From Candidatus Zipacnadia bacterium (lineage in GTDB: Bacteria; Armatimonadota; Zipacnadia; Zipacnadales; UBA5352): 55,680 nucleotides of DNA. A model generated the notes under the pieces. It was not told where the DNA came from and did not search any database. It saw only the letters and a program-made list of their open reading frames with translations. This document shows positions 3,255-10,460 of this stretch, one piece after another. The first letter of the stretch is position 1; the number at the start of each line of letters is the position of its first letter. The DNA lies in assembly GCA_029821635.1 (NCBI GenBank), contig JALGSW010000046.1, positions 1 through 55,680 on the forward strand. Direction: 5' to 3'. The translations under genes and the position numbers were made by a program.

Positions 3255-3505
3255 TCAGCCGTCTGCTGTTGTGGCCCCGACGCCCTCGCCGGGGAGATCA
3301 GGTGACTGTTGGACGAACTGCCGGAAGCCATCCGCGGTCCGCTGGCTCACGCGCTTCGAGGCAGCATCGTAGTGATAGTAGCTGTTCCCGCCCGCCGCGA
3401 AGTCGATGCGCGTCGTGAGATTCTCGGTGTTGTAGGCGTAGTATGTGGTCCCGGCGGCCTCCTGCTTCGCCACCGTGTTCCCGCAGGACTCATACCGACC
3501 CAGGG
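3255..3505 (-). pseudogene. RHS/YD-repeat fragment, terminal piece of the RHS cargo array
   Basis: An open stretch on the minus strand encodes YD-type repeat sequence: GNTVAKQEAAGTTYYAYN, then NLTTRIDFAAGGNSYYHYD and SKRVSQRTADGFRQFV, ending at TGA 3255-3257 after an unrelated QQSPDLPGEG tail. It is about 80 residues, with no start of its own and no hyperconserved RHS C-terminal core, so it is a remnant rather than a gene. Bases ~3312-3436 closely repeat 6366-6487. It follows the stop of the lipoprotein gene at 3520 by only ~15 bp, so that cargo gene is bounded on this side by RHS sequence. Confidence 0.8.
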
Positions 3506-3519
3506 CGGGATGCAGTGCG

Positions 3520-4656
3520 TCAATCTATCGACCACAGCTCTGTCACCTGGCCTGACAGCATATCGACTGTCACGATGCGCGCAGCATCGGCGACCACAAC
3601 TACCGGAGGACGAAGCCATTGGACGCCTGGCCGGAGGCCATACACAGTCAGAGCAGCCTGGTGGATTTCGCCATCATCCGGGTTCACGTACTCCAGTGAG
3701 AGGTCGGCGCTATCCGACTGTCGTGCAATGATCACATGCTTGCCTGTCTTATCAATATCAGCCCGGACGACATTGGGTAGGGTCTCACGGACGAGATCAA
3801 GCTCATTAGTTCCCGTGTCCAGCCGCTCCACCGAACAACCTTCGGCGTGCGCCCGCCACACTACCGCCCATCGGCTGTCGGGATGTCCGCTGGCACCAGT
3901 CACATCGTCAGCAAGCGCCGTAAGACGGCTCAAGTCGGGAACAGTAGCTACTAGGTGACCCTCGGAGAGGAAGTAGAGGGAGTTGCCTTGAGAGAAGAAG
4001 AGATACTGTGCCTCCCTGAAGACAGATGCTCCCCACGTCCCCAGGCTCTTGCTGCTGATCACGTCGCCTTGCGGCAACTGCAGCACGATGACTTCAGGTG
4101 CGTCTGGCCTGCCTTGGGGGAGAGTGGGGACCACGATAAGCGCCGCGACATCACCTGCGGACGACACCGCCAGAGAGACGACAGCGGGCGCGGGTGCGCT
4201 TGGGGACTGGGCGAGCCCTGCCAGCACGCCAGAGAGTGGCACCGTGCTGGCAACATCACCGCATCTATCGACTACCACTAGGCTCTTGGTCTGGTCACCC
4301 CTCGCGGTGAACGTCGATACCGCAACGCTGACATGCTGGCCCTCCTCAAACCAGTTGCTCATGCCCTCGACCAGGTCTCCTCCCCCGACAGGCTGCACCC
4401 GTCGGGCTGGGAAGTGTTCAGGATCCACTAGGATCACAAACTGCGACGCTATCTCCACGCCCATGCCCGGACAACCCACAATCTGCTGTTTTGGACCGGC
4501 CCACGTCGCCACTTGATAGCCTATCAGGGCTGCTGGCGCCGCGACATCCGCTCCGCCCTCGAGCTGTTCGTGACTGCCAATACCGGACGACCTTGAACAG
4601 CCGCTCAGTACAGCCAGTGTAGCCATCAGGCCCAACGTTGTTGGTGTGCAGCGCAT
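3520..4656 (-). CDS. lipoprotein cargo gene within the RHS array, function unknown
   Basis: 378 residues from the ATG at 4656, which has GGAGG 5 nt upstream; an in-frame GTG at 4668 lacks such a site. The N-terminus MRCTPTTLGLMATLAVLSGC is a lipoprotein signal with lipobox LSGC, so the mature protein is lipid-anchored. The rest alternates short beta-rich blocks (for example VVVDRCGD, DVAALIVVP, SVERLDTG, HVIIARQSD, RIVTVDMLSGQVTEL), which fits a beta-propeller of the kind found in TolB/WD-like proteins. No enzymatic motif was seen. It begins 12 nt after the stop of the RHS tip gene and ends next to another RHS fragment. Local base composition looks less GC-rich than its neighbours, suggesting transfer. 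By position it could protect against, or partner, the RHS tip; that is inference. Confidence 0.75.
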   Translation of the reverse strand: MRCTPTTLGLMATLAVLSGCSRSSGIGSHEQLEGGADVAAPAALIGYQVATWAGPKQQIVGCPGMGVEIASQFVILVDPEHFPARRVQPVGGGDLVEGMSNWFEEGQHVSVAVSTFTARGDQTKSLVVVDRCGDVASTVPLSGVLAGLAQSPSAPAPAVVSLAVSSAGDVAALIVVPTLPQGRPDAPEVIVLQLPQGDVISSKSLGTWGASVFREAQYLFFSQGNSLYFLSEGHLVATVPDLSRLTALADDVTGASGHPDSRWAVVWRAHAEGCSVERLDTGTNELDLVRETLPNVVRADIDKTGKHVIIARQSDSADLSLEYVNPDDGEIHQAALTVYGLRPGVQWLRPPVVVVADAARIVTVDMLSGQVTELWSID

Positions 4657-4668
4657 GTTGACCTCCAC

Positions 4669-5562
4669 TCATGCTGGAAAGTTTGGGGCGCCGGGCACTA
4701 GGAACCCACGTGGCACTCGCTTGAACTTCCCCGTCGCCAAGCAGAGAACCTCCTGCTGGACACACCACGCTGAGCAGGCGTCCTGCTTGTCACCCGTTGG
4801 GGCCCACACCATGCAGTGACTCTTGCACGTCCCTGCGTACAGGGAGCAGACCGGCCGGTACTTGTTGGGTAGATTGGTCACGGGTGGAGGCAGTTCAGGT
4901 CCTACCTCGCGGGGCGGCTCCGGAGGCACGACTCCCGGCAACTTGGACTTGGGCGTGCATACCCGCTTTGTGAACGTGCTCCTCGAGTTCGTCACTTTGA
5001 TAGACTCAGGCCATGAGCGCTCCCAATACTCCCATCTCCCGCAATGAACTCTACCGTAGCGTCTAGAGCATATTCGCTTGTTGATGTACCAATGCTCTCT
5101 TACCCAATAATGTGTTACCCATTTGCCAAGCCCGGGAGGCCAGCCGATCACGCAGTTCCCGTCGACATCGGGCTCCGTACTGGTGTCTTCCCACTCAACA
5201 TAGTCGTTGAATACATTCACCCACTCTGTGCAGGCCAGGCCAGCGGGATCCACTGCTGCTGCAGGTCGATTGAGCACGTACACAAGCCAGTTCTCCGCAG
5301 CTCTCGCCGGATCCGCCGTCGTGAACCGCCCCACCCCCTGCGCGTAGTCCCGGAACCCCAGGTGGTACATGCTCGCGTTGGGCATGCGGTAGTAGCGCTC
5401 GCGGCCGGCGTAGGTGTGCGGGTTGACGGTGCTCCCGGTGCTCGCGAGCAGCACGCCCCAGGCGTCGTGGCGGTAGGTGTCCGTCACCGCCTCGTGGGTA
5501 GGGATCAGCGCCAGTTGAGTGAGCTCAAACTCCGGACCAGATTGGCGACTTCGGTCATTCAC
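4669..5562 (-). CDS. RHS C-terminal core with cysteine-rich variable tip (truncated RHS protein)
   Basis: 297 residues from a GTG at 5562. From about residue 14 the sequence is RHS: an EAVTDTYRHDAWG segment (residues ~24-36), then PHTYAGRERYYRM, GFRDYAQGVGRFTTADP and NRPAAAVDPAGL (to ~109). This is the hyperconserved end of RHS repeat-associated core domains. Residues 110-297 form a unique tip with about a dozen cysteines, many aromatic residues and a proline-rich linker (~225-245). No known toxin domain was recognised in it. The long N-terminal YD-repeat barrel is absent, so this is an orphan C-terminus. The start overlaps the TGA of the upstream membrane-protein gene. A lipoprotein gene follows after 12 nt. 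It may be a remnant or a displaced cassette. Confidence 0.7.
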   Translation of the reverse strand: MNDRSRQSGPEFELTQLALIPTHEAVTDTYRHDAWGVLLASTGSTVNPHTYAGRERYYRMPNASMYHLGFRDYAQGVGRFTTADPARAAENWLVYVLNRPAAAVDPAGLACTEWVNVFNDYVEWEDTSTEPDVDGNCVIGWPPGLGKWVTHYWVREHWYINKRICSRRYGRVHCGRWEYWERSWPESIKVTNSRSTFTKRVCTPKSKLPGVVPPEPPREVGPELPPPVTNLPNKYRPVCSLYAGTCKSHCMVWAPTGDKQDACSAWCVQQEVLCLATGKFKRVPRGFLVPGAPNFPA

Positions 5563-6050
5563 GACCCATTGCCATCATCAGCTGCAGAGACATGCGGGAC
5601 GTCGTCGGTTTGTGCATTGCCACGCCGTCTCCGCACCGATAGCCAACTGCCTGCTAGGCCAGAAGGGATTGCCAGTAGAGCTGAGGCCCCTACGAGATCG
5701 TGTGGAGCCAAATGGTCTGAAGACAGCGGCAGTGAACTCAGATATGCCCCCATCAGTACGACCAGCGGAGTCATGACGGCCCAGTTCCGCAATTGAGGAG
5801 CAACGAATGCACATATGTACCCACCAACCAGCGCGGCTGGCGCGAGACCTGCAGTCATTGTTATCAGGCTGGCGGCTGCCGGCAGGTCCGCAGAAAGGAA
5901 CCAATCACCCGGCAATAGACTTGTCCGCTTGCCGACTTGCAGGATCAGGTACTCCACTGTCACTGTCACAAGTACGAAGACGATATACGATGCAATGAAC
6001 TGGAGTGCGCCAACAACGAGCCGCGGGATGATGCTAGGTCGTTCCTGCAT
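5559..6050 (-). CDS. small polytopic membrane protein, RHS-array cargo
   Basis: 163 residues with about four hydrophobic segments: ~10-32 (LVVGALQFIASYIVFVLV), ~55-80, ~88-105 and ~118-135. A basic turn (VRRRRGN) and a hydrophilic tail follow. No family was recognised. The ATG at 6050 has GAGAGGAG 9 nt upstream and lies only a few bases after the stop of the RHS fragment at 6056, so the two could be translated together. Its TGA overlaps the GTG of the next RHS fragment. The gene is flanked by two copies of the same RHS coding segment (5455-5514 and 6149-6208). Small membrane proteins beside polymorphic-toxin tips are often immunity proteins, but no cognate toxin can be named here. Confidence 0.65.
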   Translation of the reverse strand: MQERPSIIPRLVVGALQFIASYIVFVLVTVTVEYLILQVGKRTSLLPGDWFLSADLPAAASLITMTAGLAPAALVGGYICAFVAPQLRNWAVMTPLVVLMGAYLSSLPLSSDHLAPHDLVGASALLAIPSGLAGSWLSVRRRRGNAQTDDVPHVSAADDGNGS

Positions 6051-6055
6051 CTCGG

Positions 6056-6490
6056 TTAGCTCCTCTCTTCCTGCTCCCCCATCTCTATTGCCTTTTGCGG
6101 ATCTGCCGGTCGACAGTGAATCGATTCGCCGTTCACCAGACGGTCCACCCCCCAGGCGTCGTGGCGATAGCTATCGCTCACCGCCTCGTCCGCCCCGGTC
6201 AGCGCCAGCGTGGGCCTAAGCGGCCGCGCACGCGGACGCCGGTGGTTGTAGTGATAGAAGCTGCTCGTCTCGCGCCGCATGGCCTCCAGCCCCGAGCCCA
6301 TGGTGTAGTGAGCGATCGTCTCCTCGCGCTCCAACTGGAGCTTGAGCATATCCGGCCCCTGGTAGACGAACTGCCGGAAGCCATCGGCGGTCCGCTGGCT
6401 CACGCGCTTCGAGTCGGCGTCGTATGCGTAGTAGCTGTTCCCGCCCGCCGCGAAGTCGATGCGCGTGGTCAGGTTCTCGGAGTCGTTGGG
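6056..6490 (-). pseudogene. RHS/YD-repeat fragment (middle piece of the array)
   Basis: The minus strand reads through RHS sequence: SENLTTRIDFAAGG, then NSYYAYDADSKRVSQ, TADGFRQFVYQGPDML, then YHYNHRRPRA and DEAVSDSYRHDAWG. After DAWGV it departs into about 30 unrelated residues ending at TAA (6056-6058). In a full-length RHS protein the DAWG segment would continue to the C-terminal core, as it does at 4669-5562, so this copy is cut at that point. Its upstream edge merges with the 3' end of the membrane-protein ORF at 6469. Bases 6366-6487 repeat ~3312-3436; 6149-6208 repeats 5455-5514; and 6348-6384 repeats the fragment near 7033-7069. Confidence 0.75.
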
Positions 6491-6915
6491 GCATCAGGGG
6501 ATCTGTGCAGCTTCGCACGACGCCAGCTGCCAACAGCCCATGCTGCTGCAATCCCTACAGCGCTCCAAACCAGCGGCATCACAAACCAGTGAAGGTGAGG
6601 GTGGCGGAGCCACAGCCCGAGGGATGGCCCGCATAGAACGCCCCAGAGAGCTGACGCTTGTGGACAAGTGTAGCCAGTGAGTGCACCTACCATCAGACAG
6701 GCAAGCCCGCCAACTACGGCTACCTCAGTGCCGATCGCTTCGTAGGCAGCGAAGAAGCTCTCCATGGTCGCGGTACCCTCCATTGCCTCGGCGGCTGTAC
6801 GACTGAGTTCATAGAGGCCTGAAGAGGGCAACCAAGCCGCTGCCACACCCACCGTGAGCGCTGCTATCAGGGAGGTAATGACCACATTGGCGACTACGAC
6901 AAACGCAAGACACAC
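6469..6915 (-). CDS. small polytopic membrane protein, RHS-array cargo
   Basis: 148 residues from a GTG at 6915, with about four hydrophobic segments: ~3-28 (LAFVVVANVVITSLIAALTV), ~62-80, ~84-100 and ~108-126. No family was recognised. The start is uncertain. A good AGGAGG lies farther upstream, about 9 nt before an in-frame CTG at 6954, which would add LNAPDPSAKRRGP; no in-frame ATG exists between. The last residues (about PTTPRT) are read out of frame from the neighbouring RHS fragment, so the insertion seems to have fused this ORF's end to RHS DNA. RHS fragments with the same FRQFVYQGPDML segment lie on both sides (7010-7080 and 6056-6490). Confidence 0.55.
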   Translation of the reverse strand: MCLAFVVVANVVITSLIAALTVGVAAAWLPSSGLYELSRTAAEAMEGTATMESFFAAYEAIGTEVAVVGGLACLMVGALTGYTCPQASALWGVLCGPSLGLWLRHPHLHWFVMPLVWSAVGIAAAWAVGSWRRAKLHRSPDAPTTPRT

Positions 6916-7009
6916 CGGCCCGCGACGCTTTGCTGAAGGATCTGGTGCGTTCAGGATGCCTAACCTCCTGACGTCGGTCGGATCACGTAGGATGCTAACC
7001 CACAGCGCG

Positions 7010-7080
7010 CTAGCGCATCGAGAGCAGCCTCAACATATCCGGCCCCTGGTAGACGAACTGCCGGAAGCCGTCCGCCGGCA
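7010..7080 (-). pseudogene. short RHS fragment, first piece of the array
   Basis: About 22 codons read ADGFRQFVYQGPDMLRLLSMR and then stop (TAG at 7010-7012). The first part matches the fragment at 6056-6490 almost base for base. It begins abruptly next to the hairpin at 7081-7111 that follows the pilin-like gene, so the array's left boundary (in its reading direction) is here. Confidence 0.65.
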
Positions 7081-7111
7081 TCGGTGCTCCCCCGGCCTGG
7101 GGGAGCACCGA
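7081..7111 (-). terminator. perfect 13-bp hairpin after the pilin-like gene
   Basis: Arms 7081-7093 and 7099-7111 (TCGGTGCTCCCCC and its exact complement) enclose a 5-nt loop. The hairpin lies 18 nt past the pilin-like stop codon. There is no clear T-run after it, so it may act as an intrinsic terminator of the T-poor kind or as an RNA-stabilising end. It also marks the edge of the RHS array. Confidence 0.55.
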
Positions 7112-7129
7112 ACCGGCGTCCCCGGGACC

Positions 7130-7979: not shown

Positions 7980-10460
7980 CTACATGTCATCCGGCAGGCG
8001 GATGACGCGCGCGTCGTCGAGCAGCACCACGTCGCCCTCCTCCTGGTCGAGCGCGCGCGGGAGGATCACGAGCCGTCCGGCCTCCTCCGGCACCTCCACC
8101 ACCGCGCTGAGGAGCTGCCAGGCGCCCGTCCCGCCCTCGCCCGCGACGGACTGATTCGCGTCCGCGCGCACCCAGCCGCCCTCCGGGGCATGCCACTTGA
8201 GCTCCAGCCGCGGCTGCTGCGCGTCGGAGCCACTGCTCTTCGCCCAGATCGACACGTAATAGCGTTCGCCCGGCGTCACGGGCATGTTGGCGATGAAGGT
8301 CGCGAGCCTGGCGCCGACGATCTTCGCGCAGCGCGGCTCAGTGCGACCGCCCTCCTGCTCCCACGTGAGGTAGTCGGTGCTGCCATCGATCGACCACTTC
8401 GACCAGCCCGGCGGCGAGCCCGCGGTGACCCAGTCCTGGCCTTCCGGCGCGTCCCCGGCGATCTCCTCGAAGCCCGGGTTCGGGCACAGGTTCTCTGCAT
8501 CCGGATGCTCCAGCACCCATGCGAAGGCCGCGACCTGCGTGGCGACCGAGTCGCTGGCGGAGGCGGCGATCGCTGCGAGGCGCTCTGCGCTGATCGCATC
8601 GCCCGCCGCGAACAGCCCCGCGAGCGCCCCGGAGTAGGCGGCGTTGAGGTCGCCCTTCCAGGAGTTGAGGCGGCTGGCGCGCTCGTTCACGAGCCGGTCG
8701 TAGGTGCCCGCGAGCAGCTCGTCCTCCATGACCGACGCGAAGACCGCCTCGCGCTGCGCGGTGAGGGCAGAGAGCGCCTCCAGCTCGTCGAGGAGCTCGT
8801 CCGGCTGCACCTGCGCGGCCATGTCGCGGACGGTGCTCGCCTGCCAGTACTCGCGCAGGATCGCGTCGGTGAGCGCGAAGCCCCGTGCGACGAAGTCCAC
8901 GCGCGCGTCGAAGGGCGCGGCCTGTGCGAGGCGCGTGGCCTCGGCGAGGTCGGCGACGCTCGCCTCAAGCTGCTCGGGCGTCCAGAGCGCGATCTGCTGG
9001 GGGACCGAGCTGATGCCGTAGAACCAGCGGCCCTCGCGCTCGGTCAGGATCGTCTCCTCGAAACGCTCGTAGAGGCGCGCCATCGGGGCGGCGGCGGGTC
9101 CGAACATGCCCGCGTAGTAGTCGTCGAGGATCGCGCCGACGTCCTGCTGCGGGTCCCACATGAGCTTCGCGCGGGCGTACATCATCGGCCCGGCGTACCA
9201 CCAGGTGGGCCACGACTCGTTGGTCATCGCGACCGCGCCGATCTCATCGTAGAAGCGCAGCGACTCGGCCATCAGGCGCGGGTAGTTGCGCGGGAGCAGC
9301 CACATCTGGCTCGTGTAGTTGTAGACGCCGAAGGCGCCCGCGGCCTCGGTCCATGCGCGCGCGATGGCCTCGTCCTCGGCGCGGTAGGCCGGATCGTGCC
9401 ACGCGCCGACGTCCTGGGTGATGACGACCAGCACGTTGCCAGGCAGCTCGACGCCGCGCGGGACCGGCTCGACGCTGGAGTACGCGATGCAGGTGAGCCA
9501 CTTGTCCGGGTGCGTCTCCTGCAGGACCTCGGCGACCTGCTTGACGAAGGTGAAGTAGCGCTCGGACTTGACTTCGCGGTTGCGGAAAGTGTAGCCGGGG
9601 ATGTCGAGCGCGTTGCATTCGTCGCACTGGCACCAGCCGCGCCCGTCGTTCATGCCGAGGGAGAAGTAGTTGGCCTCCGGGTGGTCCACCCACCACTGGC
9701 GCGCGGCATCGATGGCAAGCTGCACGACCTCGGGGTTGCTCGTGCAGGGCTGCCAGCCGTGACCGAGATTCGAGATGCGCCGCTCGCCGTTGCTCAGCGG
9801 GAAGTACTCCGGGTGCGTCTCGGCGTGCTCGTCCACGCGCACAATGTTCAGGAGATTGTGCGAGTAGCGGTTGAAGGGCACGTTCGTGTCCATGTCGGTG
9901 ATGCGCACGCGCCGCTGCCAGGTGTTGCCGTGGTCGCGGATCGAGCGCTCGATCCCGTGGTTCTTGCGGCACAGGAACGTGGGCTCGACGCGCTCGCGCA
10001 TCGGTGCGACCGTGACGGTAGACATCTCCGGCACGTTCATGCCGAAGTCGGTGGGGATGTACCAGCGCACGCCGAGTTGCTCGAGCAGCCAGTAGACCGC
10101 GTTGAGCGTGCCATCGGGCACGTTGCCCGCAAGGACGAGGCGCTCATCGGTCGCCTCGACAACGAAGCCATCGAATGCCAGCGATGCGAGGTCGGCGGCC
10201 TGCGCCCAGGCGTCATCGGGCGCGCCGAGGTAGACCGCGGGCGTGCCGGCGGCGAGCTCGGTCACGATCGGGAGTTCCGCGCCGGCCATCAGCCGCAGGT
10301 GCAGGTTCAGCTCCTCGGCAGCGAGGGCGACTTCCGGGGCGGCGTCGGCGGGCACGACGATCTGCGCGACCGGTGCGCCGTCGCGGATGAGCGTCAGATC
10401 GGCCGCGCACGGAATGGCGACGCAGAGCGTAAGCAGAGCGATCATGGCTGTGCGGATCAT
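7980..10460 (-). CDS. secreted DUF4838 protein with C-terminal carbohydrate-binding-like domain
   Basis: 826 residues; GAGGAGG lies 8 nt before the ATG. A signal peptide (MIRTAMIALLTLCVAIPCAA) leads into an alpha-glucuronidase-like N-domain (EVALAAEELNLHLRLMAGAELPIV). The DUF4838 region follows (~170-480), including SLGMNDGRGWCQCDEC, whose CxC-x2-C cluster recurs in this family. Residues ~640-826 look like a carbohydrate-binding beta-sandwich (NLCPNPGFEE, then GERYYVSIWAKSSG and VVLLDDARVIRL). It probably acts on polysaccharide outside the cytoplasm; the reaction is not established for the family. It is the last gene of a minus-strand run with the UroD-like gene (10525) and the secreted protein at 11732. 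A palindromic repeat lies in the 64-bp gap upstream. Confidence 0.8.
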   Translation of the reverse strand: MIRTAMIALLTLCVAIPCAADLTLIRDGAPVAQIVVPADAAPEVALAAEELNLHLRLMAGAELPIVTELAAGTPAVYLGAPDDAWAQAADLASLAFDGFVVEATDERLVLAGNVPDGTLNAVYWLLEQLGVRWYIPTDFGMNVPEMSTVTVAPMRERVEPTFLCRKNHGIERSIRDHGNTWQRRVRITDMDTNVPFNRYSHNLLNIVRVDEHAETHPEYFPLSNGERRISNLGHGWQPCTSNPEVVQLAIDAARQWWVDHPEANYFSLGMNDGRGWCQCDECNALDIPGYTFRNREVKSERYFTFVKQVAEVLQETHPDKWLTCIAYSSVEPVPRGVELPGNVLVVITQDVGAWHDPAYRAEDEAIARAWTEAAGAFGVYNYTSQMWLLPRNYPRLMAESLRFYDEIGAVAMTNESWPTWWYAGPMMYARAKLMWDPQQDVGAILDDYYAGMFGPAAAPMARLYERFEETILTEREGRWFYGISSVPQQIALWTPEQLEASVADLAEATRLAQAAPFDARVDFVARGFALTDAILREYWQASTVRDMAAQVQPDELLDELEALSALTAQREAVFASVMEDELLAGTYDRLVNERASRLNSWKGDLNAAYSGALAGLFAAGDAISAERLAAIAASASDSVATQVAAFAWVLEHPDAENLCPNPGFEEIAGDAPEGQDWVTAGSPPGWSKWSIDGSTDYLTWEQEGGRTEPRCAKIVGARLATFIANMPVTPGERYYVSIWAKSSGSDAQQPRLELKWHAPEGGWVRADANQSVAGEGGTGAWQLLSAVVEVPEEAGRLVILPRALDQEEGDVVLLDDARVIRLPDDM

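What the first reader, a model, noticed from the sequence alone, without database searches (positions are those of the whole stretch)
3255..7111. RHS cargo array: three unrelated genes bracketed by repeated RHS core fragments
On one strand RHS pieces alternate with cargo genes: fragment 7010-7080, membrane protein 6469-6915, fragment 6056-6490, membrane protein 5559-6050, RHS C-terminus with new tip 4669-5562, lipoprotein 3520-4656, fragment 3255-3505. The fragments are not successive parts of one broken gene. They overlap: FRQFVYQGPDML occurs on both sides of the first cargo, DAWG on both sides of the second, and NLTTRIDF...FRQFV recurs beyond the third. Cargo thus sits between direct repeats of RHS DNA, as if circular cassettes had entered by recombination at RHS sequence. 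Known RHS loci keep displaced tips with immunity genes; here the payload is mainly envelope proteins, in an order I do not know from described systems.
Basis: partly seen in the sequence, partly recalled or inferred. Interest (0 to 1): 0.82.

Follow-up and report, generated by a model that had tools for sequence, protein, structure and literature searches.

The report
Decayed RHS tip and immunity array
A sediment bacterium carries the remains of a row of RHS toxin-tip modules, in which most toxin ends are gone but the neighbouring membrane or lipoprotein genes, probably their immunity genes, are still there; this follows a known pattern, although a sister species has an unusually long, intact-looking version of it.

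Summary
On the minus strand of 3255-7111, four overlapping fragments of the last ~190 codons of an RHS core alternate with three unrelated genes. The fragments are 79-90% identical, so they are not assembly duplicates.

The "cargo" is best read as the partner (putative immunity) genes of an orphan rhs-CT/rhsI array. Each gene follows the place of an RHS tip. Only unit 3 still has its tip, reached through core plus a DPAGL motif. Units 1 and 2 lost the tip but kept the partner. All three partners have a Shine-Dalgarno site; the RHS fragments do not.

The organism is Candidatus Zipacnadia (WS1, Armatimonadota). A same-genus MAG (G003) holds at least 30 modules of the same plan (RHS core, unique tip, adjacent partner). 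There, 25 of 27 partners have a hydrophobic N-terminus against 14 of 52 ordinary genes. "Envelope payload" is therefore a rule of such arrays in this clade.

Poole 2011 and Kirchberger 2017 describe this architecture and a mechanism for it: homology-facilitated illegitimate recombination. Circular cassettes are not needed. Toxicity and immunity are inferred, not shown. The window feature is a degraded member of a known kind; the long sister-species array is the more interesting find.

The parts
7013..7076 (-). RHS fragment 1 (PADGFRQFVYQGPDMLRL), core codons about 239-255 of the L102 reference; tip lost
6469..6954 (-). partner 1: membrane protein (start CTG 6954 with AGGAGGT, or GTG 6915); last codons and stop read into RHS fragment 2
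   Evidence: no Pfam match
6146..6490 (-). RHS fragment 2, core codons about 210-324; remainder of core and tip lost; ORF runs on to 6056 in unrelated sequence
5559..6050 (-). partner 2: membrane protein, 163 aa, AGGAG site
   Evidence: private to this genome apart from weak hits in G008
5284..5530 (-). RHS fragment 3: Rhs_assc_core, core codons 304-381, leading to the DPAGL motif
4669..5283 (-). tip 3: the one surviving variable C-terminal tip (204 aa, Cys-rich), no known family
3520..4656 (-). partner 3: lipoprotein (lipobox LSGC), 378 aa, GGAGGT site, starts 12 nt after tip 3 stop
   Evidence: no homolog in 45 related genomes
3297..3503 (-). RHS fragment 4, core codons 189-255; no tip or partner follows it
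3255..3294 (-). copy of a dispersed REP-like palindromic element that abuts the end of fragment 4

Best explanation
This is the decayed, headless remainder of an RHS polymorphic-toxin locus: a row of displaced (orphan) rhs tip / immunity modules. Each unit was once RHS core 3' end, then variable tip, then partner gene that protects the cell from that tip. New modules enter at the 5' side through homology in the RHS core, while the far end joins by illegitimate recombination. That pushes older modules downstream and leaves 5'-truncated, overlapping pieces of core. Later deletions removed the tips of units 1 and 2 and the full-length RHS gene. The partner genes, which have their own ribosome-binding sites, stayed, perhaps because they protect against kin that still carry the old tips. 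The partners are membrane proteins and a lipoprotein, which suggests that tips in this lineage act in or on the cell envelope. Shown: fragment overlap, gene order, adjacency, ribosome sites, envelope features, composition, and the same plan in relatives. Inferred: toxicity of the tips, immunity function of the partners, order of insertion, selection for retention.
For: Fragments overlap in RHS coordinates and three of the four start just after or within the end of a partner gene. Unit 3 runs through the RHS-associated core and DPAGL into a unique tip with a partner 12 nt downstream. All three partners have SD sites of 5 nt or more; the RHS fragment ORFs have none. In same-genus G003, 30 modules show the same plan with unique tips, partners mostly within about 60 nt of the tip stop, SD sites in 11 of 27 partners against 1 of 30 tip ORFs (P 7e-4), and a hydrophobic N-terminus in 25 of 27 partners against 14 of 52 control genes (P 1e-8). 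Window-type units with core, tip and membrane partner occur in G003 C179 (duplicated) and C5; G026 C528 has a near full-length RHS, tip, lipoprotein, partial RHS, second tip, second lipoprotein. Four of 30 G003 tips carry HExxH (0.29 expected, 0 of 2000 shuffles), a motif of known RHS metallopeptidase toxins (PMC3482391), and one is fused to ankyrin repeats, a known immunity fold. The literature describes the same features: variable lengths of upstream homology, orphan tips without initiation signals, immunity genes with SD (PMC3150448), and displacement with retention of immunity genes (PMC5361080).
Against: No tip or partner in the window matches a known toxin or immunity family. Partner 3, partner 2 and tip 3 have no convincing homolog in 45 related genomes, so no intact tip is known for the surviving partners. 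No full-length RHS gene or YD-repeat gene is in this MAG, which is 87.6% complete. Structure models were too poor to use. Linked divergence of tip and partner was seen for one tip pair only and weakly (tips E 6e-14, partners E 0.002).
Confidence: 0.8

Rival explanations
1. Cargo cassettes: circular DNA molecules with RHS homology and unrelated payload genes integrated one after another by recombination at RHS sequence. The payload has no functional tie to RHS tips.
For: Cargo between direct repeats; foreign-like composition; in G003 each module begins with a conserved ~320-nt lead, which would suit a cassette site.
Against: Cargo is not random: it follows the tip directly, has ribosome sites, and is almost always an envelope protein. 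In the window each fragment starts at a different RHS codon, not at a fixed site. No integrase or attachment-site signature was found.
Confidence: 0.06
2. The short RHS-core proteins are surface-displayed or secreted variable proteins (adhesins or enzymes) and the downstream lipoprotein or membrane protein is their anchor or export partner, not an immunity protein.
For: Nearly all partners are envelope proteins; tips are Cys-rich (3.0% against 1.4% in controls), fitting an extracellular life; several lipoproteins beside RHS tips in relatives match PD40 beta-propeller repeats.
Against: Partners are mutually unrelated and differ in topology, which is odd for an anchor; tip frames lack ribosome sites; in the window tips are deleted while partners are kept, which suits immunity better than anchoring.
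Confidence: 0.08
3. Pseudogene debris: duplications and deletions inside one RHS locus trapped ordinary neighbouring genes by chance and nothing is expressed.
For: Three of four fragments lack a tip; GC3 of partners is low (55-64%); the same-family genome G006 lacks the interval altogether.
Against: All three partners are open with good ribosome sites; the same order occurs in intact form many times in relatives.
Confidence: 0.06

Closest known systems
Orphan rhs-CT/rhsI and cdiA-CT/cdiI module arrays (Poole et al. 2011, PMC3150448)
   Same: Overlapping fragments of core of varying length, variable tip after DPxGL, adjacent small gene with ribosome site, tip fragments without initiation signals, fragments that lack tip or partner.
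   Different: No full-length RHS head in the MAG; two of three partner-bearing units have lost the tip; all partners are envelope proteins; uncultured Armatimonadota; the G003 array has at least 30 modules against 11 orphan pairs in the largest cdi example of that paper.
Orphan immunity-gene arrays of Vibrio cholerae T6SS clusters (Kirchberger et al. 2017, PMC5361080)
   Same: Successive displacement, remnants of the effector 3' end, immunity genes retained; one-sided homology proposed.
   Different: Effectors there are VgrG and other T6SS effectors, not RHS core fragments; here immunity has not been tested.
Polymorphic toxin loci with toxin cassettes and polyimmunity loci (Zhang et al. 2012, PMC3482391)
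   Same: Toxin-immunity order, strings of immunity genes as remnants of former toxins, HExxH peptidase tips, ankyrin immunity proteins.
   Different: No window tip or partner matches a described toxin or Imm family; partners are nearly all exported.

Membership tests
Orphan rhs-CT/rhsI module array | RHS-associated core fragment before each tip | tested here: met
   TIGR03696 on unit 3; fragments 1, 2, 4 map to the same core
Orphan rhs-CT/rhsI module array | DPxGL-type motif marks the core/tip border | tested here: met
   VDPAGL in unit 3; DxxG-type motif in 28 of 30 G003 modules, counted by eye
Orphan rhs-CT/rhsI module array | Tip unrelated between modules | tested here: inconclusive
   Only one tip survives in the window; in G003, 3 tip pairs among 30 tips show similarity
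Orphan rhs-CT/rhsI module array | Small gene directly after the tip, able to be translated; tip without initiation signals | tested here: met
   SD sites for all three partners, none for RHS fragments; 11/27 against 1/30 in G003. Caveat: the unit 3 ORF start overlaps the partner 2 stop (GTGA), so coupling is possible
Orphan rhs-CT/rhsI module array | Full-length rhs gene at the head of the locus | tested here: not met
   None in this MAG, 87.6% complete; a near full-length RHS heads the array in G026 C528. This lowers the claim to a headless remnant
Polymorphic toxin / immunity pair | Tip inhibits growth and partner specifically protects | not testable with these tools
   Needs expression experiments
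Integron-like or circular cassette array | Integrase and fixed recombination site per cassette | tested here: not met
   Window fragment starts differ by up to about 115 codons; no integrase among the ORFs read near the array, though integrase profiles were not searched genome-wide

The most novel reading that the evidence does not exclude
In Zipacnadia, RHS tips form a large reservoir (at least 30 modules in one genome, each with a ~320-nt uniform lead) of envelope-acting toxins, several of them peptidase-like, neutralised by exported lipoprotein or membrane immunity proteins; the uniform lead would serve as a dedicated recombination border for swapping tips.
Probability: 0.25. Interest if true: 0.62.

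Novelty: new member of a known kind. Interest (0 to 1): 0.4.

Why it matters
It extends orphan RHS tip/partner arrays to an uncultured class (Zipacnadia) for which I found no report of RHS systems in the papers searched. It also shows a strong bias towards envelope partners. The G003 array, with at least 30 modules, is a ready source of uncharacterised tip/partner pairs to test for envelope-acting toxins and exported immunity proteins.

Tried and rejected
Assembly duplication: rejected, copies are 79-90% identical. One RHS gene broken by three insertions: rejected, fragments overlap. Known toxin or immunity families: Pfam on tips and partners, NCBIfam on tips and window proteins, gave nothing apart from ankyrin repeats and one weak SecDF head domain. 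Homologs of partner 2, partner 3 and tip 3 in 45 related genomes: none convincing; partner 1 was not searched. AlphaFold of tip 3 and partner 3 without an alignment: pLDDT 36-37, not used further. Partner 3 against the lipoproteins that stand beside RHS tips in G026 and G018: no significant profile match. The 2309-aa RHS-like frame in G003 C94 as donor head for the G003 array: rejected, no shared DNA with the lead; it looks like a Tc-complex B/C-type gene. The palindrome at 7081-7118 as a mate of the 3255-3294 repeat: rejected, that hit is a self-complementary hairpin behind the pilin gene.

Full report
OBSERVATION. The window is contig C85 of a 5.0-Mb, 247-contig MAG (87.6% complete). Relatives that carry the same RHS core are deposited as candidate division WS1 and Candidatus Zipacnadia, a class of Armatimonadota (PMC10290634). 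On the minus strand, 7111 to 3255 reads: RHS fragment 1 (about 7076-7013); partner 1, a membrane protein (6954 or 6915 to 6469); RHS fragment 2 (6490-6146); partner 2, a membrane protein (6050-5559); RHS fragment 3 with tip (5530-4669); partner 3, a lipoprotein (4656-3520); RHS fragment 4 (3503-3297); then a dispersed REP-like element (3294-3255). Pairwise alignments of the fragments are far beyond chance (E 1.9e-45, 1.6e-16, 3e-12). At 79-90% identity they are old or separately acquired copies, not assembly errors.

FRAGMENTS. Against the most complete related core (L102 in G026, 381 codons before the tip), fragment 1 covers about codons 239-255, fragment 2 210-324 (alignment to 336), fragment 3 304-381 plus tip, and fragment 4 189-255. 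Three fragments start right behind, or inside the end of, a partner gene. The last codons and stop of partner 1 are encoded by RHS DNA, and several G003 partner frames likewise run into the next RHS lead. Such joints are what illegitimate recombination at one end would leave.

PARTNERS. Each cargo gene stands where an immunity gene stands in known RHS loci. Partner 3 starts 12 nt after the tip 3 stop. All three have Shine-Dalgarno sequences (AGGAGGT, AGGAG, GGAGGT) while the RHS fragment frames have none. Poole et al. report the same contrast for an orphan cdiI and its tip fragment (PMC3150448). One caveat: the unit 3 frame starts at a GTG that overlaps the partner 2 stop, so it might be translated by coupling. 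Cargo is AT-richer than RHS DNA and the flanks (57-61% against 63-68% and 68-70% GC), with low GC3, as expected of young, exchanged genes. Partners 2 and 3 and tip 3 have no convincing relative in the 45 other genomes of the class that were searched; partner 1 was not searched.

RELATIVES. RHS-core hits occur in 16 of the 41 genomes searched (this one and 40 relatives, all of the same order), in tandem in several. In same-genus G003 the window-type core occurs on two contigs with core, tip and membrane partner (C179 duplicated; C5 with two different pairs). G026 C528 holds a near full-length RHS gene (its frame broken once in the MAG), tip, lipoprotein, a second partial RHS copy with another tip, and a second lipoprotein; the second lipoprotein reaches the Pfam PD40 beta-propeller cut-off, the first falls just below it. 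G003 also holds a second, larger set of another RHS type: 46 full or partial copies of a ~320-nt lead over 13 small contigs, 30 of them read as units with RHS core, a tip and usually an adjacent partner. Several of these contigs begin or end within the lead, as repeats break assemblies, so it is likely but not shown that they form one array. The lead was found in none of the 60 other genomes at the stringency used.

STATISTICS ON G003. Of 27 partners over 100 aa and close to their tip, 25 have a hydrophobic segment in the first 40 residues against 14 of 52 ordinary genes (P 1e-8), and 11 have an SD match of 5 nt or more against 1 of 30 tip frames (P 7e-4). Tips hold 3.0% Cys against 1.4% in controls. 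Four of 30 tips carry HExxH (0.29 expected, none of 2000 shuffles reaches four). One tip frame is fused to ankyrin repeats. Both HExxH peptidase tips with RHS and ankyrin immunity proteins are described for polymorphic toxins (PMC3482391). These numbers rest on simple rules of mine (first start codon near the tip stop, Kyte-Doolittle threshold; controls taken mostly from the window and from neighbouring genomes), so the exact fractions are approximate. A rougher automatic pass over other genomes of the order gave 12 of 22 partners with a hydrophobic N-terminus, with many doubtful partner calls, so the bias is well supported in G003 and only suggested elsewhere.

SYNTENY. In same-family G006 the two genes that flank the window array lie 536 nt apart, with the ArsC-like gene truncated and no RHS or pilin gene. 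In G003 the ArsC-like gene is followed by other genes. The array is therefore specific to this lineage at this locus. Which state is ancestral cannot be told.

MECHANISM. The best account is successive displacement. An incoming module (RHS core 3' end, tip, immunity gene) recombines by homology at the core and joins at its other end without homology, pushing the older module downstream as a 5'-truncated orphan. This is the model proposed for T6SS effector loci and, in the same paper, recalled for rhs loci (PMC5361080). Loss of tips with retention of partners in units 1 and 2 matches retained immunity genes there. The full-length head is missing from the MAG, so this is a headless remnant, or the head lies in an assembly gap. 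Whether tips are toxic and partners protective was not tested.

NOVELTY. Anatomy, expression signals and evolution fit orphan rhs-CT/rhsI arrays, so I file the window feature as a new, decayed member of that kind. The envelope bias and the number of modules in G003 (at least 30 against 11 orphan pairs in the largest cdi case of PMC3150448) go beyond what I found described. That comparison rests on the open-access papers I could search, not on a full survey.

Noticed in passing
G003 contigs L079-L091 (PXBW01, WS1 T3Sed10_264): At least 30 short RHS-core / unique tip / exported-partner modules with a uniform ~320-nt lead (46 full or partial copies); a possible sigma-70-like TTGACC-N17-CATCAT stretch lies just before the ATG of the short RHS ORF.
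   Followed up: partly
window 3255-3294 (-), and L004-L020: Dispersed REP-like element CCCCGGCGAGGGCGCCGGGGCCACAACAGCAACGGCTGACGGC, more than 20 copies in this genome, one abutting the end of RHS fragment 4.
   Followed up: partly
G000:C43:32898-34404 (L023 6898-8405): Second orphan RHS core plus tip in the same genome, starting at nearly the same RHS codon (303) as window fragment 3, followed by an ORF with hydrophobic segments that runs off the contig end.
   Followed up: partly
window about 3300 and 7026, L092, L107, L108, L109: RHS fragments in several genomes begin or end near the same two core codons (about 255, QGPDM, and about 302, HYNH), possible recurrent breakpoints.
   Followed up: no
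L149 (G006:C14) about 5380-5760: At the array-free site of G006, an insert of about 330 nt with inverted-repeat ends lies between direct copies of the 3' end of the flanking gene, like a small mobile element.
   Followed up: no
L078 (G003:C94): A Tc-complex B/C-type RHS gene with an A-type neighbour (by eye) in a WS1 genome, unrelated to the cassette array.
   Followed up: no
L086 1628-2824 (-): Transposase-like ORF (DUF4338 type by eye) between lead copies in the G003 array.
   Followed up: no
window 7980-10460 (-): The 826-aa protein beside the array belongs to a large paralogous family: 28 matches in this genome and 43 in G001.
   Followed up: no
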